Source: an uncultured Opitutia bacterium (lineage in GTDB: Bacteria > Verrucomicrobiota > Verrucomicrobiia > Opitutales > Opitutaceae). From it: a stretch of 55,079 bases of DNA. The translations under genes were made by a program, and so were the position numbers. Location: assembly GCA_903839035.1 (NCBI GenBank), contig CAIMAQ010000116.1:1-55079 (forward strand), given 5' to 3'. The notes below the pieces were generated by a model. That model searched no databases. It saw nothing but the letters and a program-made list of their open reading frames with translations, and was not told where the DNA came from. This document shows, one piece after another, positions 19,551-42,730 of the stretch (position 1 is its first letter; each line of letters opens with the position of its first letter).

Positions 19551-21104
19551 TCAGGGTTCGAGCCAGAACGAATACAGGTCACCGTCCTTGAGGTGAAAGC
19601 GGATGCGCACCTGCTGACCCTTGAGTTCTGACAGGTGACGGCCCCGCCAGCGCAACTCCGCGTGCAACTGGTCGCCCGTCACGGGTTCGCAGTCCGCCGC
19701 GCCCCAACCCGGCAGGGCCTCGCGGCCGTCGCGGCTCGTGATCTCCGCGCGGATTTCCCCGGCGGCGACCGCGTTGATGAGCAGGTGGCCGCCGTCGAGC
19801 GTGACTGGCCGCGTGTCCACAAACCCGCCCTCCGCCCCCGACCGGAGCGAGACGAATCCATCCAGCCGGAGTTTCGCGAGGTGGATGGCGGCGTGATATT
19901 CATCGGCCACGCGCGGGACATTGGGCCGGTGCCTCACGTCGATGCCCGAGTAGTAGAACCAAAGTTCGTCGCCGTGCCGCACAGGATGCGACGAGGCCAT
20001 GATCTGGCCGGTGTCCCAGACGCCCGGCCCCATCGGCGAGATGGGGAGAAAATGTGTCCGGTCCCCCACCCGCGTCCACGCCCGCAGGTCGCGGCTGCAG
20101 GCGAGTTTGGGCGAATTGATGCCGTCCTGGTTGCCGCGCGGGAGCGGGATCCGCCCGCTCGACTCGAAATAATTCGGCAGCCCGATGTAGAGCCCTTCGT
20201 AGCGGAACACCGCCATGTTGTAGATCTCGACGTTGTACTCCCGCGATTCATTCACTGTCGGCCGCCACATCCGCGCGTCGGCCTCCACTTCACGAATATA
20301 CTTCTCACCCAATGCCTGGTCCTGCGCATCCGCATGGTAAATCAGCTCGGGCTTGGTCCAGTGCTCGAAATCCGGGCTGAGACTCAAATAGACCGAGCGG
20401 CCGAACGGCCCGGGATGCTTGACCGTGAGGATGAACTGCCGGCCGGGCTCGTCCCAATTCAAGTGCGACTCGTCCTCGCTGGGAATCGCCTCGACGGCCA
20501 GTGGCGTAAAGGTGAGCCCATCCGCCGAAACGATCGGCTTCCGCCCGCGCGGGCCGATCAGGCCCTTGTAACGGCGATCCGCCGGGGCGTGCGGGTCGAT
20601 CATCACGTGCTGCGTGAACGCCTTCGGGTCACCCTGCACCACCACCAGGTTGTTGTGCCGGTTGCCGTGACTTTCGACGAGGTCGAGGATCGGCTTTTCC
20701 CAGTGGATGCCATCCTTTGATCGCGCGAAACCGGCCCCGCTGGCGCCATTGCCGTCGTCGCCGAAGCGGATGTACCACATCTTCCACACCTGCTCCTTCT
20801 CGTCCCAGCTGGGGGCGTCGCGCGCCTGAATGCCAAGCCCGTCGGTGGGCACATCCGGCCGGATGACCGGGTTGCCCTCGTATTTCCTCGGCTGGTGAAT
20901 CACCCGCTGGGCGCGGTCGAGGTCGCCGAGGATGAAGTCATCGAGAAAGAGCTGACGCTCACCGGGCCGGAGCGCGACGGCCGCGTAAGGATCGTCGGCG
21001 GCGCGCCCACCGAGTGCGGCAAGCAGCAACGCCCCGGCGGCCAGCCACCGGCCCCGCTGGGACCGGCGGGACGGTGCGGACGGCGGTGGCGGGGGCAGTG
21101 TCAT
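19551..21104 (-). CDS. secreted beta-propeller glycosidase-like protein, paralogue 1
   Basis: The 517-residue protein has a signal peptide (hydrophobic run ending GGRAADD). The body resembles the five-bladed propeller of GH32/GH43/GH68-type enzymes: N-terminal ERQLFLDDFILG, then blades marked by DAPSWDEKEQVWKMWYIRFG, ARSKDGIHWEKPIL and LSLSPDFEHWTKPELIY. The C-terminal beta domain has LDGFVSLRSGAEGG and ends LKDGDLYSFWLEP. It is one of five related proteins in this window and one of the two more divergent ones. Catalytic acids could not be assigned with confidence. It is followed five bases later by the CehA-type gene and preceded by paralogue 2, all in block C. Confidence 0.75.
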   Translation of the reverse strand: MTLPPPPPSAPSRRSQRGRWLAAGALLLAALGGRAADDPYAAVALRPGERQLFLDDFILGDLDRAQRVIHQPRKYEGNPVIRPDVPTDGLGIQARDAPSWDEKEQVWKMWYIRFGDDGNGASGAGFARSKDGIHWEKPILDLVESHGNRHNNLVVVQGDPKAFTQHVMIDPHAPADRRYKGLIGPRGRKPIVSADGLTFTPLAVEAIPSEDESHLNWDEPGRQFILTVKHPGPFGRSVYLSLSPDFEHWTKPELIYHADAQDQALGEKYIREVEADARMWRPTVNESREYNVEIYNMAVFRYEGLYIGLPNYFESSGRIPLPRGNQDGINSPKLACSRDLRAWTRVGDRTHFLPISPMGPGVWDTGQIMASSHPVRHGDELWFYYSGIDVRHRPNVPRVADEYHAAIHLAKLRLDGFVSLRSGAEGGFVDTRPVTLDGGHLLINAVAAGEIRAEITSRDGREALPGWGAADCEPVTGDQLHAELRWRGRHLSELKGQQVRIRFHLKDGDLYSFWLEP

Positions 21105-21134
21105 CGGGACGGGGAGTCTGAAGTCCGCCGCCGT

Positions 21135-22757
21135 TTACCGCGCACGCAGGTAAATCGCGAAGAGCCGCGGATCGGCGTCGCCTTCCTTTTCAAAGGTAAT
21201 CTTGAGCCGGACGGTGTGCCCGCCCAGCGCGGCGAGACTGCCCTCGGGGAACGCCACCGCGCAGTCCAGACCGCTTTCCACCGGCGTGCGGCCGGCTTTG
21301 GCGCCGGAATAAGCCGACAGGAGGTCGAATTTTTCGTCGGCGATCTCGACCGTCATGCGGCGCGTGTGATCGGCATTGAGGACCACCTGGCAGCCGGCCG
21401 CCGGGAGACGGACCAAGGCCGACCAGACGGCACCCTGTTTCCGGTAATCGTGATGGGGACCCTCCTGCGGAAAAAGACCCAGCGCGCCCCAGCGATCGCG
21501 CGGCAGCACGGCCAGACCCACCTCGCCACTATAGCCCATGCCGTAGTCGGCGTTGAGCCAGCGGCCGAAATAAATCCGCGTCTCGTCACCCACGTTGAGG
21601 ATGCCGTTGCCCGACTGCGTGAGGATGGTGGGAAAATTCTTGCCCGGCACTGGCGTCGCCGGCGTGTCCAGCCGCGAGATGTAGGCCCGGCCCTTGTCCG
21701 GCTCGCGGAAGTGCAGGCCGTCGTTGCTGATGACGAGCCCGAGGTCGCAGGAGATCTTACCGTAACCGAACCAGCCCCAGCGTTTTTGCGAGTCCGAGTC
21801 GCCCGGGATGTTGTGCCACTGGCCGTAAAACCCCACGGCCACGGTGCCATAGCTCGCCGCGCCGACGCCGAGGTGAACCTGGTCATAGGGCTTGTACGCC
21901 CCGCGGTCCTCCGGCTTGGCCGGCTCGGGCAGTAGAAACGCGTCGGTGTCCCCGCCCAGCCAGCGGTTAAAATCCGGCGACAGCACCGCGCGGCCCTGCC
22001 GGCCACTCGGGTGGCCGCCGTCACTGAACGTAAGCCGCTGGCCGTTGACGATCCAGAGGCCGTTGAAATGGTAGAGCGAGGCGGTCTCGAGAAATTGGTC
22101 GATGCCGTAGTGCTCCGCGGCCTTCCAGTGCAGTCCGTCCGCGCTCGTCGCGCTGCGGATCACCCAGGTTTTCCCGTTGAAGGGATTGTAGACCATCTTG
22201 TAGCGCCGGGCGGGATCGGGGTCGGCATCGTCTTTCACCACGTGCACGCCCTCAATGAGCGCATCGGGGAGCGCGATGGCGTTGTTGTGCTTGCTACCCC
22301 GAAATTCCATCTGGCCCAGGTCGGGCTTGGTCCAAGTGAGCCCATCCGGGCTCTCGGCGTAACAGACCGGGCCCTGCGTCAGCGCCTTCACATCCGGATG
22401 GTAGGCGTCACCCGGCTCTTTCATCCCCACCGCGTAATACCACATCCGGTATTTGCCGTTGTCGTGGATGACGGCACCGTAGAAGTGCGACGCCACCTGG
22501 TCAGGCGCGAGCGGGTTGTCCCGGCTGGGCCGCATGACCGCCTCCTGGCGATACTTGGGGGTGGAGAGATATGTTCCGACGTTCTCGCGCAGCGGCAGCA
22601 GGTAATCATCAATGCCGAGCAGCAGTGCTTCACGCTCCACCGTGACGCCCGTGGCGGGAAAATAGAACCCGTCCGCGGCCGCAGACCGCGCAACCGGAAC
22701 CAGGGAGGAGCAGGCGGCGGCCATCGCGGCCGTGAGACAAAGTAGTCGCGTTTTCAT
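21135..22757 (-). CDS. secreted beta-propeller glycosidase-like protein, paralogue 2
   Basis: The 540-residue protein has a Sec signal (MKTRLLCLTAAMAAACSSLV...ARSAAA) and the family plan: GIDDYLLPLRENV near the N-terminus, GAVIHDNGKYRMWYYAVG, CYAESPDGLTWTKPDLGQ with EFRGSKHNNAI after it, SATSADGLHWK, and a C-terminal beta-sandwich. Unlike the others, its C-terminal domain lacks the PGFxL motif and reads DEKFDLLSAYSGAKAG. The repeated YAESPDG-x-x-W motif is the blade signature of GH43/GH32-like enzymes. It lies between the DapA-family aldolase gene (35 bases upstream) and paralogue 1 (30 bases downstream). Substrate unknown. Confidence 0.75.
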   Translation of the reverse strand: MKTRLLCLTAAMAAACSSLVPVARSAAADGFYFPATGVTVEREALLLGIDDYLLPLRENVGTYLSTPKYRQEAVMRPSRDNPLAPDQVASHFYGAVIHDNGKYRMWYYAVGMKEPGDAYHPDVKALTQGPVCYAESPDGLTWTKPDLGQMEFRGSKHNNAIALPDALIEGVHVVKDDADPDPARRYKMVYNPFNGKTWVIRSATSADGLHWKAAEHYGIDQFLETASLYHFNGLWIVNGQRLTFSDGGHPSGRQGRAVLSPDFNRWLGGDTDAFLLPEPAKPEDRGAYKPYDQVHLGVGAASYGTVAVGFYGQWHNIPGDSDSQKRWGWFGYGKISCDLGLVISNDGLHFREPDKGRAYISRLDTPATPVPGKNFPTILTQSGNGILNVGDETRIYFGRWLNADYGMGYSGEVGLAVLPRDRWGALGLFPQEGPHHDYRKQGAVWSALVRLPAAGCQVVLNADHTRRMTVEIADEKFDLLSAYSGAKAGRTPVESGLDCAVAFPEGSLAALGGHTVRLKITFEKEGDADPRLFAIYLRAR

Positions 22758-22792
22758 ACGGGAACCGGGGTTTGGGAAGGCGAAAAAACCGA

Positions 22793-23743
22793 TCAGGCCA
22801 GATGCGCTGGCAACAATTCAGGCGTGTGCTTGCGGACCCAGGCGATGAGCCGCTTCACATGCTGCTCGGTGCCGCTGCGGTAGGGCGACTGACAGCGCAC
22901 GCCCACCACACCCCCGCCGGCAACGCGCTGGATGCGATCGACCGCGGAGTCCCAGAGGCCTTCCTCGCGCACCATCGGGATGAGCGCCTCGTAGAGGTAG
23001 CGATGCATGGCGTCGGCGAGGGGCTTGGCCTCCTTGAGTTTGCCGGCCGCACAGAGGTTGTAGAGCTCGACGACCTTGGGGGCGTTGAAACCGGTGATGG
23101 AGCAGTAACCGCCGCGTCCGCCCGCCGGCACGCGCTCGAAGAAATCCTCGCCGCCAAAGATGGCGAGGCCAGGGGCGGCCTTGAGCATCGCCTTCAACGT
23201 CTTCAGGTCCGACCCCGTGTCCTTGGTGCCGATGAACGTCGGTACGGCCTTCGCAAGCTTCCCCAGAAACGCCGGGTCTACCTTCCGCTTGGAGCGGCCA
23301 GTCAAGTAAATGATGATGGGCGTGCGACCCGCCTCGTCGGCAATCTCCTTCACGAAGCGCATCACCTCGTCGTCCTTTAACTCGAGCCAGAACGGCAGGG
23401 CGATCTGGAGGGCGTCGGCGCCCGCGCGGTTCGCCGTGCGGATCCGCTGGCACGCCGTCCGGGTGCTGAGCGCTGTGACGCCGATCTGGATCGGAAGCCC
23501 GACCGCGTGGGCCTCGTCGCAGGCGATCTTGGTCACCCGTTCGTAAGTGGCGTCGTCCTGCGCGTAAAATTCACCGGTCGTCCCGCCGGTGTACACCCCG
23601 CTCACGCCCGTGCCGCCGTAGGCGCGAACTTCCCGGGCAAAGCGCCGGGCGTCCAGTTCGTCGTGGTCGTTCCAGGGCAGGATGAGGGCGCTCCAGACGC
23701 CCTTCAGCGTTTTGCGGGTCAGTGGCTTGATACGGGTGGTCAT
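22793..23743 (-). CDS. DapA-family aldolase/lyase (dihydrodipicolinate synthase superfamily)
   Basis: The 316-residue TIM-barrel protein has the class I aldolase residues of the DapA/NAL/KDG-aldolase family: the TTGE loop within GGTTGEF (residues 53-59), Tyr146 in IIIYLTG and the Schiff-base Lys174 in FIGTKDT. Members cleave or form keto acids using pyruvate. The context of sugar-acid dehydratases and hydroxyacid dehydrogenases makes a 2-keto-3-deoxy sugar acid the likely substrate rather than lysine synthesis (inference). The segment IYLTGR replaces the more common YNxPxR, so the substrate pocket differs from DapA. Its start overlaps the stop of the upstream amidohydrolase gene (23740-23743). 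Confidence 0.88.
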   Translation of the reverse strand: MTTRIKPLTRKTLKGVWSALILPWNDHDELDARRFAREVRAYGGTGVSGVYTGGTTGEFYAQDDATYERVTKIACDEAHAVGLPIQIGVTALSTRTACQRIRTANRAGADALQIALPFWLELKDDEVMRFVKEIADEAGRTPIIIYLTGRSKRKVDPAFLGKLAKAVPTFIGTKDTGSDLKTLKAMLKAAPGLAIFGGEDFFERVPAGGRGGYCSITGFNAPKVVELYNLCAAGKLKEAKPLADAMHRYLYEALIPMVREEGLWDSAVDRIQRVAGGGVVGVRCQSPYRSGTEQHVKRLIAWVRKHTPELLPAHLA

Positions 23744-24564
23744 GGGGTAAAAGTGGCGGGGAGTTTTTCGAGGCCGAAGAAGCGGCGGGCATTGTCGCGG
23801 AGAATCAGGCGTTTCGCCTCGTCCGGGATTTCGGCCGCCTCGATCCGCGCGCGCTGGAGCGCGACGTGGTAGAGCGGCGTGTCGCTACCGAACAGCAGGC
23901 GCTCGGCACCCAACTCGCGGACCGCCCATTCGACGAGGCCGGGCAGGATGCTGCGCGCGCTGGACGTATCGACCCAGAGGTTGCCGTGCTTCGCGGCTTG
24001 CACTGCGCGCACCTGCAGGTCGACGCGGCCATCGGCGCCGGCGCCATTGCCCAGGTGAGCCAGCAGCACGCGGGCGCCCGGGTGGCGGTTGGCGAAGGGC
24101 ACAAACGCGTCGGGCAGGCTGTTCGGACAGCCGCTGTGCGTCATCACCGGCGCCCCAACTTCCTCGAAGAAAGCGAACAACTCCTCGCCGCGGTCGGCGA
24201 TCTGGTAGGCGTGCTCCTCCGGATGAATCTTAATGCCGACGCACCACGGCGCCTGCAGCATCCGCCGGGCCTGGTCGTAGGTTTCCGGCTGGAGCGGATT
24301 CACGATCACGTATTGCAGGAGACCGCGGACCTTGGGCACCTCGCGAAACGCGGCCTCGTTGGCCGGCGCCACCGCCGTGGTGCGGCCCCGCGGAATCAGC
24401 CCCGCCAGCGGCGAGACAATCGTCCATTCAATGCCACAACCGCGCGCGCGGGAGGCGACCTCCTCGCCCGTGCCGCTGGAAAACTCACCCAGCAGCGTGT
24501 TCTCATGGACATAGCGGCCGTAGTGGGCGTGGGAATCGATTGCGATGACGTCGCCGAATTTCAT
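23740..24564 (-). CDS. amidohydrolase family 2 (TIM-barrel metal hydrolase)
   Basis: The 274-residue protein starts with IDSHAHYGR, giving the metal-binding pair His12-x-His14. It continues with IKIHPEEH, APVMTHSGCP and the late LFGSDTPLYH, the expected order for amidohydrolase_2 proteins (decarboxylases, lactonases, hydratases). The chosen ATG follows the family pattern of a few residues before the HxH; the frame runs on upstream without family similarity. It is the first gene of block C and shares a 288-base divergent promoter region with a second amidohydrolase at 24853-25968. A lactonase or decarboxylase step on a sugar acid or aromatic acid would suit the setting. Confidence 0.87.
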   Translation of the reverse strand: MKFGDVIAIDSHAHYGRYVHENTLLGEFSSGTGEEVASRARGCGIEWTIVSPLAGLIPRGRTTAVAPANEAAFREVPKVRGLLQYVIVNPLQPETYDQARRMLQAPWCVGIKIHPEEHAYQIADRGEELFAFFEEVGAPVMTHSGCPNSLPDAFVPFANRHPGARVLLAHLGNGAGADGRVDLQVRAVQAAKHGNLWVDTSSARSILPGLVEWAVRELGAERLLFGSDTPLYHVALQRARIEAAEIPDEAKRLILRDNARRFFGLEKLPATFTP

Positions 24565-24676
24565 GGAAATAAAATCAAGCGCTCCCCCACCCGAAAATAC
24601 ACCCGGCGACCGCCGCGCCACCCAGGGGCTCCCACCGGCATGAAGCGGGGACCGGCGCAAGCCGCTGACAGGGGAC

Positions 24677-24684
24677 GGTATACC
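24677..24684. promoter_or_regulatory. GGTATACC palindrome, candidate GntR/FCD operator
   Basis: This perfect 8-base palindrome lies between the two divergent amidohydrolase genes. FCD-subfamily GntR proteins often bind sites built on a GTATAC core (for example UxuR-type sites). A second GTATAC core lies 76 bases away at 24754, and another sits beside the GntR gene at 49378-49385. Regulation by that GntR protein is an inference. Confidence 0.4.
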
Positions 24685-24852: not shown

Positions 24853-25968
24853 ATGATCATCGACAGCCACGCTTACTGTTTTCCAGCCCCGGATACACTG
24901 GCCGGCCATCCATCCGTCGCCGCGCACCTGGAATTCTGGCAGCGCCAGCAGGCGGTGCACCACCAGCCGGCGTTTCGCGTGCGCGACCGGGCTCCCGGTG
25001 ACTCGAGGGCCCTCCTCGCCCCCACGGCGAAAGATCCGCTGCACCTGGCGAAGGACGTAAACTTCCGCGTGGACCGCGTTTGCAACCGGCTCGTCTGGAC
25101 CGTGGCGGGCGAGGACTACACGAAGCAGCAGCTGCCGCCGAACGTGATCGAGTTCGGCCCGGGCGCACTCATCGCCGAGATGGACCACGCGGGAGTGGAT
25201 TGGGCGCTGATCCATGTGGACGCCACACTCACCAAGGACCCGGCTTACCTCAGCGCGTGCGTCGCCGCCTTCCCCTCCCGCCTGCGGGCGATGGCGCCTA
25301 TTGACGAGTGGCTCATCCCCACGTCCCCGGATGCCGCCATCGAGCAGGCTGTCGACGCCGTCCAGCGTCACGGATTGCACGCGCTGAAGATCATTCCGGC
25401 ATATGCCTACCAACGCACCCGCTCGACGAGCTTCGACGCGCCGGAGTGGCGCCCGTTTTGGGACGCGGTCGCGCAGCTCGGCGTGCCGATCTTTTTCACC
25501 CTCGGAGCCAGCCCGGGCTCGACCGATCCCCGCGCAGGATTCCTGCAGGAGTTGTGGACGCTGCGGCGCTGGCACGAACGCTACCCGCAGGTCGGCGTCG
25601 GCATCACGCATGGCTATCCTTGGCGCGATTTTCTCGAGGGGGACCGGTTCATCCAGCCGGCCGGCATGTGGGACCCGTTGGTTGATTCCGGCCTGTGCCT
25701 GGAGGTGGGCTTCCCTTTCCGGGTCGGCGACCTTTTCGATTTCCCCTACCGCAAGTGCTGGCCCGTGCTCGAGGCCATGGCGAAGCACCTCGGGCCGGAC
25801 CATCTGATGTGGGGCACGGACATGCCGTTTCAAAACCGCTTCTGCACCTACCGGCAGTCCCGGGACTACATCGAGAACTACACGACGCCGATCCTCTCCC
25901 CGGAGGACGTCGCCAGGATCATGGGCGGAACCGCCGCGCGCCTGCTCGGCCTCAAGCCCAATCGCTGA
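24853..25968 (+). CDS. amidohydrolase family 2 protein with altered first metal motif
   Basis: The 371-residue protein belongs to the amidohydrolase_2 barrel: it opens MIIDSHAY and later shows VGITHGYPW and LMWGTDMPF, the last giving the catalytic Asp. The usual first motif H-x-H is H-x-Y here (His6, Tyr8), so one metal ligand is missing or replaced, as in some decarboxylase-like subgroups. It is divergent from the other amidohydrolase and convergent with propeller paralogue 3, and is the only plus-strand gene between blocks C and D. The start sits at the usual position immediately before the metal motif. Substrate unknown. Confidence 0.82.
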   Translation: MIIDSHAYCFPAPDTLAGHPSVAAHLEFWQRQQAVHHQPAFRVRDRAPGDSRALLAPTAKDPLHLAKDVNFRVDRVCNRLVWTVAGEDYTKQQLPPNVIEFGPGALIAEMDHAGVDWALIHVDATLTKDPAYLSACVAAFPSRLRAMAPIDEWLIPTSPDAAIEQAVDAVQRHGLHALKIIPAYAYQRTRSTSFDAPEWRPFWDAVAQLGVPIFFTLGASPGSTDPRAGFLQELWTLRRWHERYPQVGVGITHGYPWRDFLEGDRFIQPAGMWDPLVDSGLCLEVGFPFRVGDLFDFPYRKCWPVLEAMAKHLGPDHLMWGTDMPFQNRFCTYRQSRDYIENYTTPILSPEDVARIMGGTAARLLGLKPNR

Positions 25969-26052: not shown

Positions 26053-27549
26053 TCATTTGAACTGGACGGAGTAGATGTCCGCATCCCGCATCACGATGCG
26101 GAACCGCACCGGCTTGCCCGCTAGGCGGCTGAACGGCGAGCGGTCGGTCATCCCCTGCGGGTGCTTCCACGGCACGACCCCGGCGATCTTGTCGCCGAAG
26201 ATCACGGGCGATTCCTCCAGCAGGAAGCCCGGGATCGGCTGGCCCTTCTCGTCCTGCACCTCGATGCGGATGCTGCCATTGGCCGCCGTGGAGTAATTCA
26301 TCACCATGCTCGTGCCCGTGAAAATGATCGGCTTGGTGATCAGCTCGCCACCGGGATACCCGGCGTGGGCCGACACAAACCCGTCCGGGCGCAGCGTCAG
26401 CCGTTCGATGCGGTTGGAGGGAAAGGTGTAGTCGCGCTCAAGGTAGATGGACATTTCCTCCGGTCCCGTCTCGAGCAGACCGTGGGACGGGGTGTTGGCC
26501 CGGTGCGCCCAGTTGCGCTCATGCAAGCCCGGCCGGATCCAGGCCTCCTCAAACCGGTGCCAGTGCACGCCGTCGCGGGAGCTCATGAACACCGCGTCCG
26601 ACGACCCCGGGCTGCGCGCATCCATCTCCGGGAAATACGTCTTCCACGGCATGAACCGCCGCGGCATTGCCACGTAGATTTGCGGCGCGCGATAATACGG
26701 CAGCGTCGAATTGGTGTAAAGGTGCGCCCCGGGCGCGTCGCCAAAGTCGGCCCACACGCCGGTCGTCCAGTGCAGAAAGTCCTTCGACGTCGCATACTTG
26801 ATCGAACGCAGCCCGTGGATGAAATCCCGGTAGATCGCCGTGTACTGGCCGCGCAGCGTGTCCCAGAACACCACGTTCAAAGAATCAAACGCGCCGTCCG
26901 TGATGACCGGCTCCTTCTGCACCTGCCGCCAGTGCACGCCATCGGCCGACACGAACCCGTTGAGGACCGGCTTCTTCTTGTCGCCGTCATAGTTGCTGCT
27001 CGCGACCGCCTTGTAGCGCTCTTCCGCGCGCGCCGCGGGATTCTCGTCCTTGAAGGGCGAGAAGTTATGCGAGCCGATCTCCGCCCAGACGATGTTGTTG
27101 GCCTTGGACCCGTTGAACTCATGCAGCCCGAGGTTCGGGCGCGTCCAGGTGATGCCATCCTTGCTCTCCGCGTAGCAGGTGTATTGCGCGTGGGCCGGCA
27201 CCGTGGGCTCGTCCGGCGACACCGTCTGCTTGATCGTGTAACTGGGATCGCTGCTGCCGCGGTAATACATCCGGTAGCGGTCGCCGTCCTTGAACATCGT
27301 GACGTAACCGCTGGTGCCACCCTCCCACGGCTGGTCGAACTTGAAGGTCGTGCCCTCCGAGTGCGGCTCATGCAGCTTCAGCTGCACGCCGTTCATCGCG
27401 TCAATCAGGTAGTCGTCAACGAACAGTTCCAGGCGCGAGCCGACGTCGACCGGCGGGGCTTTGGATTCGGCGGCCGCGGCCAGGCTCGCCGTCAGGAGCA
27501 GTCCGGCGGCCAACGCCGGAAACACGGAAAACAGGGGGGGTATTTTCAT
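26053..27549 (-). CDS. secreted beta-propeller glycosidase-like protein, paralogue 3
   Basis: The 498-residue protein has a Sec signal (to about SLAAAAES), then the conserved opening GSRLELFVDDYLID, KLHEPHSEG and QPWEGGTSG, and the blade motif YAESKDGITWTRPNLGLHEF. The C-terminal beta domain carries the family signature: DGFVSAHAGYPGGELITKP, IRIEVQDEKGQPIPGF, GDKIAGVVPWK and a terminal RDADIYSVQF. The closest relatives in the window are paralogues 4 and 5. The propeller motifs recall GH32/GH43-like enzymes, but the catalytic triad is not evident to me. It is the last gene of the 14-gene block D, 51 bases after the hydroxyacid dehydrogenase gene. Confidence 0.77.
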   Translation of the reverse strand: MKIPPLFSVFPALAAGLLLTASLAAAAESKAPPVDVGSRLELFVDDYLIDAMNGVQLKLHEPHSEGTTFKFDQPWEGGTSGYVTMFKDGDRYRMYYRGSSDPSYTIKQTVSPDEPTVPAHAQYTCYAESKDGITWTRPNLGLHEFNGSKANNIVWAEIGSHNFSPFKDENPAARAEERYKAVASSNYDGDKKKPVLNGFVSADGVHWRQVQKEPVITDGAFDSLNVVFWDTLRGQYTAIYRDFIHGLRSIKYATSKDFLHWTTGVWADFGDAPGAHLYTNSTLPYYRAPQIYVAMPRRFMPWKTYFPEMDARSPGSSDAVFMSSRDGVHWHRFEEAWIRPGLHERNWAHRANTPSHGLLETGPEEMSIYLERDYTFPSNRIERLTLRPDGFVSAHAGYPGGELITKPIIFTGTSMVMNYSTAANGSIRIEVQDEKGQPIPGFLLEESPVIFGDKIAGVVPWKHPQGMTDRSPFSRLAGKPVRFRIVMRDADIYSVQFK

Positions 27550-29840: not shown

Positions 29841-30296
29841 TCAGACGCGGACCTTGACCACGCACTTCAGGATTTCCGCGGGGGCATCCCACGCGCAGGA
29901 CGGGATGTGGCCGTCCTCGGGGAAGAAGATCGTGAACTGCCCGGCCGTCACACGCACGGGCACGCCGTCCGGGATCAGGCCGTAGAGGGCCGCGTCCTTC
30001 TCGGCATCGAACGGCATCGTGACGTTCGTGAGCAACGGCAGCGGTGCCCAGTACATCACCTCCCGGCCGCGTTGCATGTACTGGATGTCGATGTATTTCC
30101 GGTGCGACTCGTAAACCCGCTCGGCCATGGGCTTGGTGGAGTGCTGCTGGACGAAGGCGAAGATGTCCTCGCCGTCGATCTCATGGCGGCCGACCGGCGT
30201 CTGGTCGGTCAGCTGGCGGAGAAAGGCGAAGGCCTTCGCGAAACGGGGCGAGAGCGCGTGGTAGGTGCTGGCTTGGTTGAGGGTGTCGAGGATCAT
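29841..30296 (-). CDS. YhcH/YjgK/YiaL family protein
   Basis: The 151-residue protein has the DUF386 hallmarks: HEIDGEDIFAFVQ, HRKYIDIQYMQRG and the metal-site segment FFPEDGHIPSC. Family members are small cupin-like proteins often found with sialic-acid, gulonate or xylulose genes (YhcH, YiaL) and are proposed to act as mutarotases/isomerases or to handle sugar anomers. It sits exactly between the two enolase-superfamily/dehydrogenase pairs, 46 bases after copy 2 of the dehydrogenase on the transcript, implying a role with a shared intermediate. Confidence 0.9.
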   Translation of the reverse strand: MILDTLNQASTYHALSPRFAKAFAFLRQLTDQTPVGRHEIDGEDIFAFVQQHSTKPMAERVYESHRKYIDIQYMQRGREVMYWAPLPLLTNVTMPFDAEKDAALYGLIPDGVPVRVTAGQFTIFFPEDGHIPSCAWDAPAEILKCVVKVRV

Positions 30297-33765: not shown

Positions 33766-33769
33766 CGGT

Positions 33770-35185: not shown

Positions 35186-35201
35186 CGCGGGGCGTTGCGG
35201 G

Positions 35202-36680
35202 TCACGACCAGAGCTTGAGCCGGGTTCCCTCCCAATACGTGGCAATCATCCCTTCGGGCACTTCGCTGCTCAGGAACTCGGTAAAGTAGCGCAATTCCGG
35301 CGGCACTTGGCGCCCGTCCGGGTCCCGGATCCACAGCAGGTGCTGCGGCTGCAGGCGCTTGAGCGACTCCGCGGCAAATCCCGCGGCCTCGTCCCGCAAT
35401 TGCGGGCAGTGTCGCGCCGCCACCATCGCCGTCCACAGGAAACGCGTGAGGCACTCCCCGAACATCCACGACGCCGTGTAGGAGAGCATGGGGTGTCCGC
35501 CAATCCAGTGCTCCTTGGCCGTCCGCTCCGTGCGCGGGCACGGGCGCCAGCTGCGGTCGGCAGCGTTCACCAGGAACCAGTAGAGATAACCCCAGTAGTG
35601 CGGATCGAAGCCCATCGCATGGTCGGCCCACCACAGCCGGACCGTGCGGTCCAGGTCTGCGCTGGTGAAGCGGTCCGGCATGCACTCATGGATGATCGAC
35701 GCGGCGATCGCCGTGAACTGGCAGTGGATGATCTGTTCCCAGTGCACGAATTCCCCGGGACGCTTCTGGTTGTGGACAAAGATTTCCCAGCTCGGCTCCC
35801 GCCACCTGTCCGCCTTGATCTCCCCGATCGTCGAGTCGAGGCGGTTGTGCGTCATCCACCGTCCGTGGCTCATCACGTGCTCGAAAGCCGGAAGGTATTT
35901 CTTGTCGCCGGACAACTTGTACGCGGCCGCCACCACCGCGGCCATGATCGCGTTGTAGTCCGTGTAGTCCCGGCCCATGTCGAAGTGGTTGCCGTTCTCG
36001 AAGTGCAGCGTGAAGTCGGCGGCGATGAGGTAGTCCGCGAAGGCCTGGATCATCGTGCGGATCTCCGCCTGCTCGTCCGGCGACGCGACCGGATAGAACG
36101 TCCACAGCCCCCACATCGCATGCAGGTACTGGTCCCCGGTCGTATGGCCGGAGAACTCGAAATGGTAGGGTTTGCCCATGAATCCCGCGCGGCCGTGCTC
36201 CACTCCCAGCTGGTAAATCCGGTGCAATGAGCCATACGCCTTGCGCGCCGCCGCCAGCGCCGCGGGATCGCTCGACGCCAGGAACCGGACGCTCTGCGCC
36301 GCGAGATGGCTGCCCGACGTCGTGATCGAGTTCTCGTTGTTGAAGAAATCGGTCACGGAACGGAACTTCAGCCCGAAGTTGTCGGTGAACTGGTCCATTC
36401 CGTCGAAATCGGACGGACGCACCGGCCGCAGGCCTTCCGGCGTGACTTTCGACATGCACACAAAGATCCCGCTCGGATGAGCCCGCGTCGCCGAGGTCTG
36501 CCGCTCAATCCATTCGATTTTCTGTCGGAGCGTGAGCGCGTTAAACCCGGGAAAGAGCCCTTCGATCGGATTGGGTCCGCCGCCCGGGTGCGCGCCCGGC
36601 GACGACGCCAGCAGGTCCAGCAGCGGAAACGAGACTCCGCCGACCACGAGGGTTTTCACGAATGCACGCCGGGTGTTCAT
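35202..36680 (-). CDS. secreted toroid-like protein with twin-arginine-type signal, copy B
   Basis: The 492-residue protein starts [19 protein letters not shown], a twin-arginine-like export signal (RRAFVK followed by a hydrophobic stretch), suggesting it may be exported folded. The rest is helix-rich with many Trp/Tyr/His, including [14 protein letters not shown] and [13 protein letters not shown], and aligns with copy A just downstream. No exact family is recognised; an (alpha/alpha) toroid glycosidase or lyase is the best guess. Its start overlaps the stop of the YjhG-type dehydratase by four bases (36677-36680). Confidence 0.62.
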
Positions 36681-38653
36681 AAGGAGGGGGAAAGGTCCTG
36701 CCGGGACGCGGCGGCCTCCGCCGCCAGCCCCTTGGCCAGCAACTCACTGATGCGGCGGGCGTCGTAGACACAGCCCGCCCAGCTCCCGCCGCTCGCGTTC
36801 TGGAGCGCCGACCAGAGACGCGTGTCGTCGGGCACGCGCGGATCGGCCTGCATCACCGGATTGCGGGGACGCGCCGCCAGCTCGGCGGCGTCGAGTCCGA
36901 CGGCCTCGACCGTGCCGGTGAGATTGCGGGTATCGATGCACACGCGCACGCGGTCGCCGTCGCGCAGTTTGCCGATCGGGCCGCCGGCCCAGCCCTCTGG
37001 GCTGATGTGGCCGATGCACGCCCCGGTGGAGACCCCGGAAAACCGGCCGTCGGTGAGCAGCGCGACCCGCTGGCCGTCGCGCACATACTTGAGCGCCGAC
37101 GTAACCTGGTAGGTTTCCGGCATGCCGCTGCCCGGCCCGATGCCAATCAGCACCAGCACCTCGCCGGCCCGGATGCGGTCGGCGCCGGTGGACTTCACCG
37201 CGGCAATGGCCGCGGCCTCGGACCCAAACACCCGCGCCGGGCCCTCGTGGCGATAGATGCCCTCCGCGTCGAGCAACGCCGGGGCGATGGCCGTGCTCTT
37301 CACCAACGCGCCCTCCGGCGCGAGGTTGCCACGGACAAAGGTGATCGTGCTCGTGCAGCCGCGCTGCCGCGCGCGCTCCGGGGTCATGATGACGTCGTCG
37401 GGATCGATGCCGTCGAGCTGATGGAGTTTTTCGCGCAACCGGCGGCGACGCTCGGACTGTTCCCACCATTCGAGATTTTCCCCGAGCGTCCGCCCGGTCA
37501 CGGTCCGCGCGCCAAGACGCAGGAGGCCCAGCGCCCGCAGTCGCAGCATCACCTCAGGCACACCGCCCGCGAGAAAGACCTGCACCGTGGCGTAACCCGT
37601 CGGCCCGTTCGGCAGCACGTCCACGAGCCGCGGTACCTCGCGGTTGATCCGGGTCCAGTCCTCGAAGGTCGGCCGGTCGAGTCCCGCGGTGAAAGCAATC
37701 GCCGGGAGGTGCAGCACAAGATTGGTCGAGCCGCCGACGGCCGCGTGCAGGACCATCGCATTGTGCAGCGCATCCGCATCCAGCAAGTCGCGCGTCGTCG
37801 TGCCCGCCTTTTCGAGAGCCAGCACCGCCCGCGCGGAACGCCGCGCCAGGTCGCGCCAAATCGGGGCGCCCGAGGGACTCAGCGCCGAGTGCGGCAACGC
37901 GAGGCCCAGCGCCTCGCCGATCACCTGGCTGGTCGCCGCCGTGCCCATGAACTGGCAGCCGCCGCCAGGGGAACCGCAGGCCTTGCAGCCCATCTCCGCC
38001 GCATGCGCGAGGGTCACCTGGCCTTGCGCGAACCGCGCCGCCAAAGTCTGGACCTTGCCCGTGTCCTCCGCCGCCTCCGCCAGCAGCGTGACGCCGCCGG
38101 GCACAAGAATGCCCGGCAACTGCGGCGAACCCGCCAGCGCGAGCAGCATGGCCGGCAGGCCCTTGTCACAGGTCGCAATGCCGATGACCCCGCGGCAGGT
38201 CGGGAGCGAGCGGATCAACCGCCGAAAAACGATCGCGGCGTCATTGCGAAACGCGAGGCTGTCCAGCATGCCGGCCGTGCCATTCGTGCGGCCGTCGCAG
38301 GGATCGCTGCAATAGCCGGCGAACGGAATCGCGCCCTGTGCCGAGAGCGTGCGCGCGGCTTCCTCCATGAGGAGACCAACCTCCCAGTGCCCCGTGTGAT
38401 AACCGAGCGCCACCGGCGTGCCGTCGGGTGCACGGATGCCGCCCTGGGTGCTGAGGATCAGAAATTCTTTACCGAGCAGTTTGCGCGGATCCCAACCCAT
38501 GCCGGCATTTTGGGTCAGGCCGAACAGATCGCCACTGGCCATTGCGCCGAGCCGCGAAGGATCGAGTGGCAAGCGCCCGACCGGGCCTGGCGCTGTCGTC
38601 CGCAGCTCGTAGATCGAGGCATCACCGGAATCGAGGAGCGGATCGGGAGTCAT
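36677..38653 (-). CDS. yjhG: YjhG/YagF-type D-xylonate (sugar-acid) dehydratase, IlvD/Edd superfamily
   Basis: The 658-residue protein belongs to the IlvD/Edd iron-sulphur dehydratases, and its length (about 655 in YjhG/YagF) and N-terminal extension place it in the YjhG/YagF branch. Cysteines for the cluster are at GYCSDPCDG (Cys115/Cys119), IATCDKGLP (Cys162) and the [10 protein letters not shown] segment (Cys226/Cys233); late conserved parts include [12 protein letters not shown] and [12 protein letters not shown]. YjhG and YagF dehydrate D-xylonate to 2-keto-3-deoxy-xylonate. The neighbouring FAH-family gene could process that product. It is 20 bases after that gene on the transcript. Confidence 0.87.
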
Positions 38654-38672
38654 GGCGGGCGTGACAGCGGGT

Positions 38673-39503
38673 TCAGCCGACCACGTTGACCAGCGTGCCG
38701 ACCCCGGGCAGCGAGATCCGTATCTCGTCCCCGTGGGCCAGCGTGAAGGTGTCCGGCGGCACGATCCCCGTGCCGGTCATGAGATAGCAGCCGTGGGGAA
38801 ACGTGTTGTCCCGGAACAGCCAGTCCGCGAGCGACGGCAGCGGGCGCTTGATCTGGCCGAGCGTCGTCTCGCCGCCAAACACCGTCGTTCCGGACCGGTG
38901 AATCTCGATGGCGATGACCGCGTCCGGGCCCGGCAGCGTGCGGCTCACCACGAGGCAGGGACCGATGGCCGCACTGCGCTCGTAGACCTTGGCTTGGGGC
39001 AGGTAGAGCGGGTTCTCCCCCTCGATGTCGCGCGACGACATGTCGTTGCCCAGCGTGTAGCCGAAAATCGCGCCGTTGCGGTTGATCGCGAGGGTGAGCT
39101 CGGGCTCAGGCACATTCCAACGCGAGTCGGAGCGGATCCGCACCACCCCACCCGGTTCAGCCACCCGGTGCGGCGTCGCCTTGAAAAACAGCTCCGGCCG
39201 GTCGGCCTCGTAGACCTTGTCGTAGAAACTCCCGCCGCCACCGACCTTTGATTCCTCCATGCGCGCCGTGCGGCTGCGGTAGTAGGTCACGCCCGCGGCC
39301 CAGATTTCCTGCGACTGGAGCGGAGCGAGCAACCGGCCCGGAATGCCGTCAACCTTGCGCGCGTCCCGCAGCGCCGCCTGCAGCTGGGCCAGCGGATCCG
39401 GCGCCGCAAACAGGCCGTCCAGCGACAGCGACGCCGGCAGGGCGAAGCAGCGGCCGTCGGTTTCCGCCACCAATCCTTGGACGCCGGAATAAATTTTGAT
39501 CAT
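38673..39503 (-). CDS. fumarylacetoacetate hydrolase family enzyme, likely 2-keto-3-deoxy-pentonate dehydratase type
   Basis: The 276-residue protein has the FAH metal site: Glu133 and Glu135 in VPEPEL and Asp154 in [12 protein letters not shown], with the upstream [12 protein letters not shown] segment. In the AraD1/XylX-like branch these enzymes dehydrate 2-keto-3-deoxy-L-arabinonate or -D-xylonate to 2-oxoglutarate semialdehyde (Weimberg route). Lying next to a YjhG-type dehydratase supports this reading, though no semialdehyde dehydrogenase is in the window. Its start overlaps the stop of propeller paralogue 4 by four bases (39500-39503). Confidence 0.85.
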
Positions 39504-41071
39504 GGAGCCGAGAAGTTACGGCCGGAAGTGAACCGGATCGAGTAGAGGTCGGTATCGCGCAGCACAAAATGCAAGCGGACTGCCCGCCCTGCCAGCGCGC
39601 GCAGGGTGGCGCCGTTCTTCCAGCGAACCACGCCGTCAATCTCGTCGCCGATGTGTTCGGGGCTGTCGGCCAGCGCGAAGCCGGGCAGCGGCGACCCGTC
39701 GAGGTCCTGGATTTCCACGCGGACGCTACCCGCCGCACTCGTGGCGTAATTCATCTGCAGCTCCTCACCCGAGATCCGCAGCGGCTTCGTCAGCAGCGAG
39801 CCGCCGGAATGCGGCGCGTTGACCGACGCAAAGCCGTCCACCCGGAGCACGAGGCGTTCGATGTGCCAGGCATCCTGGAGATAATTCCGGTTCACGAAGA
39901 ACATGATCCGGTCCGTCCCAAGGGGAAAGATGCCGGTCATGGGATAGTTGGTGCGCGAGACCCAGTTGCCCGCGCCCGGACCCGGGCGAACCAGCGCCTC
40001 GAGGAAGGTGCGGTCATATTGGGTTGAGCCGGCCCGGGTCGTCAGCATCACGCCGTCGGAACAGTCGTGGTTGTAGATGATGCCGCGCGGCGACTTGAGG
40101 CCGACGGCCTTGGCCTGCTCGTCCGTGACGGCGCTGCGCCCCTGCATGAACCGGGCGGCGAGGCCGACATAGAGATGGGGCGCGCGATAATAGGGCCCGG
40201 TGTTGTTGACGTAGAACTGCTCGGGCGGCGCATCCCCATAGGTCATCGGCACCAAGGTGGTCCAAGTCCGCAGGTCTTTCGAGGTTGTGCGCGCCATCGT
40301 GCGCAGTCGGTCGGCCGTCATGATACGGAAGTAGAACACGTAACACTGCTCGGCCTCGCTCCAGAACATCGTGTTGCCGCCATCGAAACTGTTGGGAAGG
40401 TCGCTCACCAGCGTGGGCTGGCGGTCCGCCGGGATCCGGTGGAAGACCAGGCCGTCCCCCGAGGCCCAGAGATCAATGCGCTTGGGTCCCTTGGGATCCT
40501 TGTAGGCGGTGTGGTTTTCGCCGCTCACGGGCACACTCTTGAGCGCCTTGACGCGCTCGCCGTCCGGCACGCCCGGGCGGGTATCAAGCCAGACCGTGCC
40601 GCCGAACAGATACCCCGAGTCATTCATCACAATGTTCGCATCGGTCCGCCCCGAGCGCTCGTCCCGGATGAGCGCGGGCTTGGTCCAGGTTTCCCCGTCG
40701 GTGCTCACGGCGACGCAAACCCGACCCAACTCATCCTCCTTATCCAGCGTCATGCCCCGGTAATAGAGCAGGTAACGGCCTTGGTGGTGGATCACCACGC
40801 CGCCGAAATTCGCCGGGCCTTCCCACGGGCGGTCAATTTTCACGACGTCGCCGGCGTGGGCCGGTTCGTGCAGCCGGAGGGTCGCGTGGTCCAGCCGCTC
40901 AATGAGGGTCTGGTCCACGAACAACTCGCGGCGCGAGCCGAGGTCCAGCACCGGCGGGGCCACAGGTGCGGCCGAGCCGGCCAGCCCGCCGGCCATCAGA
41001 CCGAAGACGGCCAGTCCGAGCCGGGAGGAGAGTTTCCATTGCAAACCGAAATCAGGCCGGGAGGAAGTCAT
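39500..41071 (-). CDS. secreted beta-propeller glycosidase-like protein, paralogue 4
   Basis: The 523-residue protein has a signal peptide (hydrophobic part [19 protein letters not shown]). The family opening is [27 protein letters not shown] and [10 protein letters not shown], followed by [16 protein letters not shown] and [20 protein letters not shown]. The C-terminal beta domain reads [46 protein letters not shown] and [10 protein letters not shown]. It is adjacent to paralogue 5 (42 bases) and closest to it and to paralogue 3. ATG 41071 was chosen as the start nearest the signal; an ATG eight codons upstream is possible. No ribosome binding site distinguishes them. Confidence 0.77.
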
Positions 41072-41113
41072 CGTGCAGGGGTGGGGTTGGGCCAAAGGGG
41101 GACCGGCGCCGGG

Positions 41114-42730
41114 CTATTTCACCGCCGGCGCGCCGGGAAACCGGAACGCGTACACGTCGGCGTCCAGCATCTGGAACTTGAGGCGGACGGGCTTCGTCAT
41201 GTAGCGCGCCACCGACTTCTGGCCGTGCCAGCTTACTTCGCCCGCGATGCGGTCGCCGATCAGGACGTCGCAGTCCGCCAGACTGAAACCCGGCAGCGGC
41301 TGCCCGGCCTCGTCCTGCAACTCCACCCGGATCTCACCCGCCGCGCTGGTCGAGAAATTTACTTCCAGATGGTCACCCGTGTAGGTGAACGGCACGGTGG
41401 TCATCGTGCCGCCGGCATACGGCGCGTTGACCGACGCGAAGCCGTCGGTCCGGAGCGAGATACGCTGGATATAGTTGGTCTTCTGGAGATGGTGCCGCGA
41501 GACGTAGAAGGAAATCTCCGCCGGACCCGTCGGGAGGATCCCGCCGCTGAGACTCGCGTAATTGCTGCGCGAACCCCAGTTGCCCAGCTCGGGCCCTGGC
41601 CGCAGGAAGGCCTCCATGAAGGGCCGGTCGAATGCCGTGCTGCCCGGCTTGGTCGTCAGCAACACGAGGTCATTGGCATCGCTCGCAAACGTGTAGGTGG
41701 GCGTCGTCTTGTTGCCCGGGAGGCGCATGATCTCGAGGGTCCGTTCCTCCTCGAGCGTGAGCGCGCGGCGGCCGGGGTTGAAGCGGTTCGCCAGCACGAT
41801 GTAGAGGCCCGGTGCGCGGAAATAGGGCGACGTGCAGGTCTCATAGAAATGCTCCCGCGGCGTGTCGCCGTAGGTCATGGGCTCGGGCTTCGACCACGTC
41901 ACGAGGTCGCGCGAAACCGAGCGGAACGACGTGCGGACGCCAGGCCGCACAATCATCCAGTCCGGCAGTGTGCGCAGATGGGTCTTCGCCTCCATGTCCC
42001 ACCAGCGGAAGTAACCGACAAAGGCCTGCTCCGCCTCGGACCAGCCGACGCTGCCGCCATCAAACGCGTTCACCCAGTCGCTCTCGAGATTGGCCTTGAT
42101 CGTGAGCTCGTGCCAGACGCGCCCGTCGGGCGAGCCCAATAGCTGCGCATGCAGGCCCTTGCCGGCCGCGCCGGCGCGGCGTTCGCCTTCGCGCATGTCG
42201 ATCGCCTTGACCCGTTCGTTCGCCGGGATGCCCGGCCGCGGGTCGTAAAAGGTGAAGCAGGCGGGGAACGACCGGCCACTCTCGTAGGCGACGATGTTGT
42301 TGTCCTTCGAACCCCGGAAATCGACGAGCCCGAGCGACGGTTTCTCCCACTTGATCCCGTCCTTACTCAGGGCCAGGCAGAGGTACTGGGTGTCAGGACC
42401 CTCCTTGCCGCTCGCGGTGTCCATGCCGCGGTAGAGCAGGTGATACAGGCCGTCGTGCAGGTAGATTGAGCTGATGAAGAACGCACTGCCCTCCCATGGT
42501 TTGTCGGACGTGATGATGGCTTCGCGGGACACCGGCACGCCGAGGCGCAACGCGGCCTGGCCGCCCACGCTCTCAATGATCGACCGGTCAACCATCAGCT
42601 GGAGGGATTCACCGAGCTTTTTCGGCCCCACCGCGTCGGCCGCGGTGAGCGACCGCGGGCCGGACCCCAACAACGCAACCACGGTGCCGAGGACCCGCCA
42701 GGCGGCGGTGGGAGGAGGGGTGGTTTTCAT
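41114..42730 (-). CDS. secreted beta-propeller glycosidase-like protein, paralogue 5
   Basis: The 538-residue protein has a signal peptide (AAWRVLGTVVALLGSGPRSL) and the opening GESLQLMVDRSIIESVGG, KPWEGSAFFIS, LYHLLYRGMDT and LSKDGIKWEKPSLGLVDF. A central blade has AFDGGSVGWSEAEQAFVGYF, parallel to paralogue 4. The C-terminal domain is [47 protein letters not shown] and LDADVYAFRF. ATG 42730 (MKTTPPP) gives a normal signal peptide; the open frame extends upstream into the end of the FG-GAP gene and is not used. It lies between the FG-GAP gene and paralogue 4 in block D. Confidence 0.77.
   Translation of the reverse strand: MKTTPPPTAAWRVLGTVVALLGSGPRSLTAADAVGPKKLGESLQLMVDRSIIESVGGQAALRLGVPVSREAIITSDKPWEGSAFFISSIYLHDGLYHLLYRGMDTASGKEGPDTQYLCLALSKDGIKWEKPSLGLVDFRGSKDNNIVAYESGRSFPACFTFYDPRPGIPANERVKAIDMREGERRAGAAGKGLHAQLLGSPDGRVWHELTIKANLESDWVNAFDGGSVGWSEAEQAFVGYFRWWDMEAKTHLRTLPDWMIVRPGVRTSFRSVSRDLVTWSKPEPMTYGDTPREHFYETCTSPYFRAPGLYIVLANRFNPGRRALTLEEERTLEIMRLPGNKTTPTYTFASDANDLVLLTTKPGSTAFDRPFMEAFLRPGPELGNWGSRSNYASLSGGILPTGPAEISFYVSRHHLQKTNYIQRISLRTDGFASVNAPYAGGTMTTVPFTYTGDHLEVNFSTSAAGEIRVELQDEAGQPLPGFSLADCDVLIGDRIAGEVSWHGQKSVARYMTKPVRLKFQMLDADVYAFRFPGAPAVK

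What the first reader, a model, noticed from the sequence alone, without database searches (positions are those of the whole stretch)
19551..42730. Five paralogous secreted beta-propeller proteins in one locus
Five secreted proteins (19551-21104, 21135-22757, 26053-27549, 39500-41071, 41114-42730) share an N-terminal LF-x-D-D/Q-x-x-I motif, S-x-DG-x-x-W blade motifs like those of GH43/GH32 enzymes, and, in three of them, a C-terminal domain with DGF-x-S, GG-x-x-x-T-x-P, V-x-QD-x-x-G-x-P-x-PGF, GD-x-I-x-G-x-V-x-W and D-A/T-D-x-Y-x-x-x-F. I could not place the catalytic acids of any known GH family. Five diverged copies beside sugar-acid genes suggest a glycan-active family working on different linkages of one polymer.
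Basis: partly seen in the sequence, partly recalled or inferred. Interest (0 to 1): 0.75.

Follow-up and report, generated by a model that had tools for sequence, protein, structure and literature searches.

The report
Five secreted propeller-type glycan enzyme candidates
A bacterium carries five related secreted proteins that are shaped like sugar-cutting enzymes but match no curated enzyme family, next to genes that break down sugar acids, and relatives of these proteins occur in at least eleven bacterial phyla.

Summary
All five minus-strand ORFs are homologous and start like secreted proteins. AlphaFold2 gives a five-bladed propeller plus a C-terminal beta-rich part for P3 (pLDDT 94) and for the most diverged copy, P2 (pLDDT 85). 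The closest solved folds are GH130, level with BT_0996 and a deacetylase for P3, then GH43, GH62 and GH159. None of the five passes a Pfam or NCBIfam cut-off. Profile distance to GH130 is of the size found between established GH families, so this looks like a separate family in the five-bladed superfamily, though the P1/P2 branch is nearer GH130. It is large: 11 named phyla among 80 named loci, and 71 of 287 other genomes sampled from the window's phylum. The copies fall in four clades. Five other genomes keep the order P3, DHDPS, P2, P1, and a Chloroflexota contig has a similar set. The neighbours form a sugar-to-sugar-acid route. Best reading: secreted glycosidases supplying that route, with candidate acids before the inner strands of blades I and III; no atomic superposition was possible. 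Main caution: a published verrucomicrobial five-bladed beta-galactosidase, Lac161_ORF10, may belong here; its sequence could not be read. Substrate and mechanism are not shown.

The parts
19551..21104 (-). P1: secreted-looking five-bladed propeller protein with C-terminal domain
   Evidence: ORF; alignment; tree; not modelled itself
21135..22757 (-). P2: most diverged copy; AlphaFold2 model pLDDT 85.4, best VIA row GH130 Z 25.6
22793..23743 (-). DHDPS-family protein
   Evidence: PF00701 1.3e-28; below the cut-off of every NCBIfam model listed
23740..24660 (-). Amidohydro_2 protein (AmidoA; lactonase-like by inference)
   Evidence: PF04909 8.5e-24
24853..25968 (+). Amidohydro_2 protein (AmidoB), opposite strand
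   Evidence: PF04909 1.8e-17
26053..27549 (-). P3: copy modelled at pLDDT 94.1; propeller about residues 59-395, beta-rich part about 396-498
26884..26886 (-). P3 Asp222, before inner strand of blade III; D or E in 161 of 171 distinct members; Glu224 in P2
   Evidence: strand limits
27322..27324 (-). P3 Glu76, before inner strand of blade I; D or E at this column in 153 of 171, at columns 74-77 in 163 of 171
   Evidence: strand limits
26806..26808 (-). P3 Arg248, start of third strand of blade III; R in 169 of 171
26596..26598 (-). P3 Asp318, start of third strand of blade IV; D or E in 150 of 171, Ser in P1
27601..28740 (-). D-2-hydroxyacid dehydrogenase 1
   Evidence: PF02826
28616..29830 (-). 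mandelate racemase/enolase-family protein 1, probably a sugar-acid dehydratase
   Evidence: PF13378/PF02746; best curated matches are sugar-acid dehydratases, all below cut-off
29841..30296 (-). YhcH/YjgK/YiaL protein
   Evidence: PF04074; TIGR00022 107.4 bits, cut-off 45.5
30343..31338 (-). D-2-hydroxyacid dehydrogenase 2
   Evidence: PF02826
31347..32597 (-). mandelate racemase/enolase-family protein 2, probably a sugar-acid dehydratase
   Evidence: galactonate dehydratase 194 bits below cut-off 311
32566..33813 (-). Kelch mutarotase-like protein
   Evidence: PF24996 48.2 bits, cut-off 45
33770..35245 (-). UnkA: no Pfam/NCBIfam match; paralogue of UnkB; travels with the propellers
35202..36680 (-). 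UnkB: no Pfam/NCBIfam match over cut-off, no PDB relative by sequence
36677..38653 (-). YjhG/YagF-family D-xylonate dehydratase
   Evidence: TIGR03432 1032.2 bits, cut-off 808.15
38673..39503 (-). FAA-hydrolase-family protein
   Evidence: PF01557 3.4e-16
39500..41071 (-). P4: propeller copy, in one small clade with P5
   Evidence: not modelled itself
41114..42730 (-). P5: propeller copy; groups with copies of other genomes before joining P4
   Evidence: not modelled itself
42777..45743 (-). FG-GAP repeat protein
   Evidence: PF13517
46027..48261 (-). TonB-dependent receptor
   Evidence: PF07715 63.7 bits; siderophore-receptor-type match below cut-off

Best explanation
The five proteins are secreted glycoside-cleaving enzymes, most likely hydrolases, of an unnamed family in the five-bladed propeller superfamily, nearest to GH130. 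Each has a propeller with a central pocket and a C-terminal beta-rich part. They would cut an external glycan into small sugars, which enter by the TonB-dependent receptor and the permeases and are oxidised, dehydrated and split as sugar acids by the neighbouring genes (non-phosphorylative route). Shown: homology of the five, predicted fold of two, distribution, clade structure, conserved synteny. Inferred: catalysis; the carboxylate pair on blades I (Glu76 in P3, Asp86 in P2, Asp88 in P1) and III (Asp222 in P3, Glu224 in P2); pocket arginines favouring a charged glycan; a division of labour among clades on one polymer. The fuel could be a 6-deoxyhexose-rich or acidic glycan; this last step is weak.
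For: P3 model pLDDT 94.1, pTM 0.91; VIA Z 23.8 GH130, 23.6 BT_0996, 21.8 GH43, 20.9 GH62, 20.8 GH159. P2 model pLDDT 85.4; Z 25.6 GH130. Family profile against PDB sequences: GH130 7fip 1.5e-7, GH32 7vco 1e-6. HHalign to GH130 E 1.1e-7, of the size found between GH130, GH32 and GH43. D/E at column 222 in 161 of 171 distinct members, near column 76 in 163, both in 157; Arg248 in 169. Four clades. The order P3, DHDPS, P2, P1 is kept in L041, L043, L044, L045 and L068, five genomes besides the window; L121 and L124 are taken to be the same contigs as L041 and L045 by equal contig length and gene positions. Neighbours: two MR-family proteins, two Amidohydro_2, DHDPS, FAH, YjhG dehydratase, two 2-hydroxyacid dehydrogenases, two SDRs, GntP and MFS permeases. 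The same enzyme classes, apart from YjhG, FAH and the 2-hydroxyacid dehydrogenases, are among those proposed for non-phosphorylative sugar oxidation in SAR202 (passages of PMC10444878; matching of COG numbers to these proteins recalled).
Against: No activity is shown here. A solved N-acetylgalactosamine deacetylase (6n1a) matches as well as GH130 for P3 (Z 23.4) and nearly so for P2 (24.1), so the fold does not prove a glycosidase; for this the confidence was lowered from 0.65 to 0.60. The GH32/GH43 triad and the blade-II Asp of GH130 could not be located: alignments put the GH130 Asp on N170 or A156 of P3 or beside D176 of P2, while D168/D176 directly follow the inner strand in both models. 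At the Glu76 column P2 has Gln87, with Asp86 next to it, and at the Asp318 column P1 has Ser. Ten of 171 members lack an acid at column 222. No coordinates were available.
Confidence: 0.6

Rival explanations
1. The family is the one of the published beta-galactosidase Lac161_ORF10 (AGW45555), and so perhaps of CAZy GH165; the window proteins are then new members of a described family with one known activity. This does not exclude the best explanation.
For: Seen of PMC5342196: abstract and outline, passages, sections 7, 13, 16, 17, 20: verrucomicrobial clone, 63.7 kDa, five-bladed propeller model, no significant conserved domain, weak GH_J match at residues 130-234, KDP at 196-198, enolase-superfamily gene in the possible operon. 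Here 4 of 171 distinct members have KDP at the D168 column, the Asp at 147, 188, 190 and 195. GH165 is said to come from agricultural soil (passage of PMC11087588), and PMC11739564 cites the Cheng paper among its references for GH147, GH154, GH165 and GH173 (passages).
Against: The paper groups ORF10 with PF04041, which none of 64 members matched at E 0.1. DUF6807, its operon partner, was found in 33 of 73 genomes that carry the family, but the nearest listed pair is about 27 kb apart (the family lists are cut, and three of the 33 have no listed family row). Its best BLAST homologs were mainly from Bacteroides, while the best loci here are mostly planctomycete and verrucomicrobial. Which of the three enzymes became GH165 was not found.
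Confidence: 0.35
2. Non-catalytic glycan-binding propellers that hold substrate at the cell surface.
For: No canonical triad was placed; FG-GAP protein and TonB receptor next door suggest surface handling.
Against: Acids before the inner strands of blades I and III in 157 of 171 and Arg248 in 169 of 171 look like an active site.
Confidence: 0.13
3. Glycan-modifying enzymes of other chemistry in the same fold, for example deacetylases, with the sugar-acid genes handling what other enzymes release.
For: N-acetylgalactosamine deacetylase 6n1a at Z 23.4 and 6n1b at 24.1 (names as deposited) and at 8.1e-5 by profile.
Against: Profile and fold matches to glycosidases and phosphorylases are more numerous and reach lower E-values.
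Confidence: 0.12
4. Phosphorylases like many GH130 enzymes.
For: GH130 is the nearest fold row and family profile; several conserved arginines.
Against: Signal-peptide-like N-termini in all five: phosphorolysis outside the cell would be unusual (established knowledge). No PF04041 match.
Confidence: 0.05
5. Nonulosonic (sialic-type) acid locus, the propellers being sialidases.
For: Kelch protein over the NANM cut-off and a YhcH-family protein; DHDPS nearest to N-acetylneuraminate lyase.
Against: DHDPS 89.6 bits against cut-off 281 and YhcH 101.4 against 160 for the anomerase; no NanE in the own genome, which is 97% complete.
Confidence: 0.04

Closest known systems
[quoted passage not shown] PF04041)
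   Same: Five-bladed propeller; top VIA row for both models, tied within 1 with others; best whole-family profile match of those tested; W-E and Y-R stretches align around blade I.
   Different: No PF04041 match; 10-19% identity in the GH130 rows; the blade-II catalytic Asp cannot be placed; extra C-terminal part; secreted-looking.
GH32/GH68 and GH43/GH62/GH117/GH159 (clans GH-J, GH-F)
   Same: Propeller fold; a C-terminal beta-sandwich is also usual in GH32 (recalled).
   Different: Nucleophile and RDP positions of GH32 fall on Gly81 and on Asp222 or Asn225; GH43 profile match weak (probability 2.4; 4.3 with another reference). One member, L107:11445-12902, does pass the GH32N cut-off (24.6 bits, cut-off 22.1) over a 44-residue stretch.
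Lac161_ORF10 beta-galactosidase (PMC5342196), possibly GH165
   Same: Phylum, size, predicted fold, absence of significant domains, enolase-family neighbour (sections read).
   Different: Sequence not available here; reported as PF04041-grouped, which members here are not.
N-acetylgalactosamine deacetylase 6n1a/6n1b
   Same: Fold, Z 23.4 and 24.1.
   Different: 13-15% identity; chemistry differs from a glycosidase.
Non-phosphorylative sugar and sugar-acid oxidation of SAR202 (PMC10444878)
   Same: MR-family, amidohydrolase, DHDPS-type and SDR enzymes together (passages).
   Different: 'Propeller', 'secreted' and 'glycosyl' have 0 occurrences in the main text.

Membership tests
GH130 | match to PF04041 over the curated cut-off | tested here: not met
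   not listed at E 1 for the 5 window proteins; 0 of 64 members at E 0.1; HMMER's filters may hide weak matches
GH130 | five-bladed propeller close to GH130 structures | tested here: met
   Z 23.8, 2.9 A over 275 residues; Z 25.6, 2.8 A over 274; shared with other families
GH130 | invariant blade-II catalytic Asp (Asp142 of BT3780; passages of PMC4599007) | tested here: inconclusive
   aligned to N170 or A156 of P3 by option, beside D176 of P2; no coordinates
GH32 | match to PF00251 over cut-off; NDPNG, RDP, EC motifs (motifs recalled; RDP also in PMC5342196) | tested here: not met
   not listed at E 1 for the 5. Of 64 members 6 match at E 0.1; of the 10 ranked highest by a GH32 profile, the window's P1 left out, 1 passes the cut-off (L107:11445-12902, 24.6 bits) and 4 stay below. 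GH32 nucleophile Asp aligns to Gly81 in 2 of 3 runs
GH43 | match to PF04616 over cut-off | tested here: not met
   P4 15.8 bits against 32.2; 2 of 64 members at E 0.1, best 0.0013
GH137 (BT_0996; family name recalled) | close sequence and fold | tested here: inconclusive
   fold Z 23.6 at 14% identity; no profile of that family at hand
GH159 | D19, D142, E190 triad (passages of PMC9278983) | not tested
   fold Z 20.8 and 22.7 only
Lac161_ORF10 / GH165 | sequence relation to AGW45555 | not testable with these tools
   its sequence was not at hand; supplement look-ups were 0

The most novel reading that the evidence does not exclude
A large, unnamed glycosidase family, spread over at least eleven phyla, that cuts glycans with a carboxylate pair on blades I and III and without the blade-II acid of its relatives (His at that column in 98 of 171 members, acid in 25), and that has split into clades carried together with a sugar-acid route as one module for a complex, probably charged, polymer.
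Probability: 0.3. Interest if true: 0.68.

Novelty: new variant of a known kind. Interest (0 to 1): 0.5.

Why it matters
About one genome in four sampled across the window's phylum carries this family (71 of 287 besides the own one), yet Pfam and NCBIfam leave the five proteins unnamed and a public plasmid record calls a member a hypothetical protein. If these are glycosidases, predictions of what planctomycetes, verrucomicrobia and bacteroidota eat are missing a major class, and a linked pathway makes the substrate testable.

Tried and rejected
Catalytic assignment by sequence alignment: D168 was first read as the RDP/EDPR Asp; the strand limits of both models put it right after the inner strand of blade II, so it was dropped as the lead candidate, without proof. 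Sialic-acid reading: weakened. Fucan reading: two GH29 and one sulfatase in the genome and a GH141-type match at 11005-13260 are compatible, not decisive. DUF6807 co-location as a stand-in for Lac161: nearest listed pair about 27 kb apart, compared by eye (against 11 and 63), inconclusive. UnkA/UnkB against PDB sequences: nothing credible. Papers on a named family of this kind were sought, on the locus; of what the listings showed, only PMC5342196 came close. PMC5352709 (passages) reports eighteen unclassified beta-propeller proteins in a planctomycete, tied to AGW45552, which PMC5342196 describes as a different protein (ORF7), and a further unclassified beta-propeller putative hydrolase on two plasmids; P1, P2 and P3 find only one plasmid, of another isolate. 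The C-terminal part was not folded alone, so its fold is untested. P1, P4 and P5 were not folded.

Rows dropped: 222 profile hits, 201 of near full length, 173 after removing contained duplicates. Two of the 173 proved redundant later, one a cut copy of P5 itself and one near-identical pair; counts are given on 171, but tree and alignment used 173. A2 holds 5 window proteins plus 112 from named loci under 620 aa; A3 is a hand-picked 64 of those, so Pfam and NCBIfam scans cover 64 of 117. One search scored only about five candidates a genome, so its counts are lower bounds and its copy numbers are not used.
Full report
Observation. The five ORFs are there, on the minus strand, at the stated coordinates. 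They are related well beyond chance: with P3 (26053-27549) as query, tblastn in the own genome gives P4 1.9e-83, P5 5.7e-68, P2 7.5e-16 and P1 7.2e-10 and 4.5e-9, and two further copies on contigs C111 and C70. Each has a hydrophobic signal-peptide-like start, judged without a predictor. The C-terminal domain is in all five, diverged in P2.

Family status. None of the five matches a Pfam model over its cut-off; the only weak match at E 1 is GH43 on P4 (15.8 bits, cut-off 32.2). NCBIfam gives weak beta-1,2-mannobiose phosphorylase and mannosidase matches on P4 and P5, best 3.1e-5, 23.5 bits against cut-off 450, and a few chance-level ones. Of 64 members scanned at E 0.1, 6 touch GH32N (best 2.3e-5), 2 GH43, 20 the same phosphorylase model (best 7.4e-8), none PF04041. 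One of them, L107:11445-12902, passes the GH32N cut-off with 24.6 bits over 44 residues; this is the only family member I saw over any glycosidase cut-off. Single-sequence searches of PDB sequences with P1 and P3 find nothing credible, but the 117-row profile reaches GH130 7fip at 1.5e-7 and GH32 7vco at 1e-6.

Fold. P3, folded with 117 sequences, has pLDDT 94.1 and pTM 0.91. Among 993 chains aligned, which are Foldseek's own best, the top rows are GH130 9gph (Z 23.8, 2.9 A, 275 residues), BT_0996 (23.6) and the N-acetylgalactosamine deacetylase 6n1a (23.4), with GH43 at 21.8, GH62 20.9 and GH159 20.8; rows within 1 are tied. P2, the most diverged, has pLDDT 85.4 and pTM 0.86 and GH130 at Z 25.6, 2.8 A, 274 residues, the deacetylase at 24.1. 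Foldseek's own lists are led by BT_0996, GH130 and GH43 for P3 and by GH130 and GH32 for P2. The C-terminal part lies outside the aligned range in most rows and is untested.

How far from GH130. HHalign of the family against profiles made from relatives' genomes gives E 1.1e-7 to GH130, 6.4e-6 to GH32 and 0.02 to GH43; between the established families the same procedure gives 2.4e-6 (GH130-GH32), 3.9e-7 (GH130-GH43) and 6.6e-8 (GH32-GH43). These are one-against-one values and shift with settings: without realignment GH130 gave 2.7e-9. Profiles were built from 22 of 23 GH130, 29 of 29 GH32 and 30 of 30 GH43 loci. By this yardstick it is a family beside GH130. Against that, the P2/P1 branch (41 rows) is closer to GH130 (4.7e-11) than any of these pairs; the P3 clade alone (13 rows) is far (9.6e-4) and slightly nearer GH32 (1.2e-4).

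Active site. The most conserved acids are D203, D131, D45, D389, D257, D168, D222, E76, E365 and D318. D131, D203 and D257 belong to the S-x-D repeats. By the strand limits of the two models, Glu76 (Asp86 in P2) precedes the inner strand of blade I and Asp222 (Glu224) precedes or opens that of blade III, positions where related families keep catalytic acids (recalled). Arg248 and Asp318 start third strands, which should face the same side. D168 and E365 lie at hairpins that should face the other side. An acid near column 76 together with one at column 222 occurs in 157 of 171 distinct members, all three with Asp318 in 138, Arg248 in 169. The column before the inner strand of blade II is His in 98 and acidic in 25 of 171, in a loop where the alignment is gappy. 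This is topology reading, not geometry: the tools gave no coordinates.

Spread and history. Among relatives 19 of 57 genomes carry it, the own one included, and across the phylum 72 of 288, the own one included. In a FastTree tree of 173 rows, midpoint-rooted and with inner supports down to 15, P1 and P2 lie on one side and P3, P4 and P5 on the other; P1, P2 and P3 stand in clades of 9, 13 and 13 rows (supports 85, 100, 86) that include other phyla; P4 and P5 share a small verrucomicrobial clade, in which P5 groups with copies of three other genomes before joining P4. So the five are not a recent tandem expansion.

Neighbourhood. The order P3, (AmidoB, AmidoA) DHDPS, P2, P1 recurs in L041, L043, L044, L045 and L068, with one or both amidohydrolases missing in L044 and L045; CehA and MFS follow in L041 and L045, another propeller in L044, and the other two stretches end there. 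P5 stands with a TonB receptor, UnkB, UnkA, MR1, 2HADH1 and P3 in L042. The Chloroflexota contig L107 carries MR1 at 60%, 2HADH1 at 53%, two P2-like copies at 53-54%, three more family members and a DHDPS at 32%. Many other loci hold the propeller without these neighbours: a DHDPS relative was found in 15 of 102 loci and an MR1 relative in 7, so the sugar-acid module is typical of the window's group, not of the whole family. Around the window copies lie two MR-family proteins, two 2-hydroxyacid dehydrogenases, YhcH, a Kelch mutarotase, a YjhG dehydratase, an FAH protein, two SDRs and GFO/IDH/MocA matches, GntP and MFS permeases and a TonB receptor. Such classes make up non-phosphorylative sugar pathways, as proposed for SAR202 (PMC10444878, passages).

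What it most likely is. Secreted glycosidases that release sugars for this route. A deacetylase shares the fold, so other chemistry is possible; the confidence was lowered from 0.65 to 0.60 on that ground. The strongest caution on novelty is Lac161_ORF10, a verrucomicrobial five-bladed beta-galactosidase without significant conserved domains beside an enolase-family gene (PMC5342196, sections read). It hydrolysed lactose but not sucrose, xylobiose, maltose or cellobiose. If it belongs here, one activity of the family is already in print. Its sequence was out of reach, so this stays at about one in three.

Verdict. A real, widespread, unnamed five-bladed propeller family near GH130; function inferred, substrate unknown.

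Noticed in passing
33770-35245 and 35202-36680 (-): UnkA and UnkB, two paralogues (23% identity, E 9e-19) without Pfam or NCBIfam matches over cut-off, travelling with the propellers (UnkA in L042, L044, L123, L133; UnkB in L042, L123, L133); possibly a second unnamed enzyme family.
   Followed up: partly
17362-19545 (-): CehA/McbA-type metallohydrolase (205 bits, cut-off 80) directly beside P1, kept in L041 and L045.
   Followed up: no
46027-48261 (-): The locus's TonB receptor resembles siderophore receptors, below cut-off.
   Followed up: no
11005-13260 (+) and 8009-11179 (+): GH141-type and GH31 matches on the other strand, with a sugar MFS_2 transporter in the frame 6993-8696.
   Followed up: no
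L128 and L125: Five and four propeller copies around a TonB receptor in two unnamed relatives of the same genus.
   Followed up: no
CP151669.1 31367-32800 (L223 5950-7383): A family member on a planctomycete plasmid, annotated hypothetical protein, next to an IS4 transposase.
   Followed up: partly
2183-2272 (+): tRNA-Ser (gga) near the window's start.
   Followed up: no
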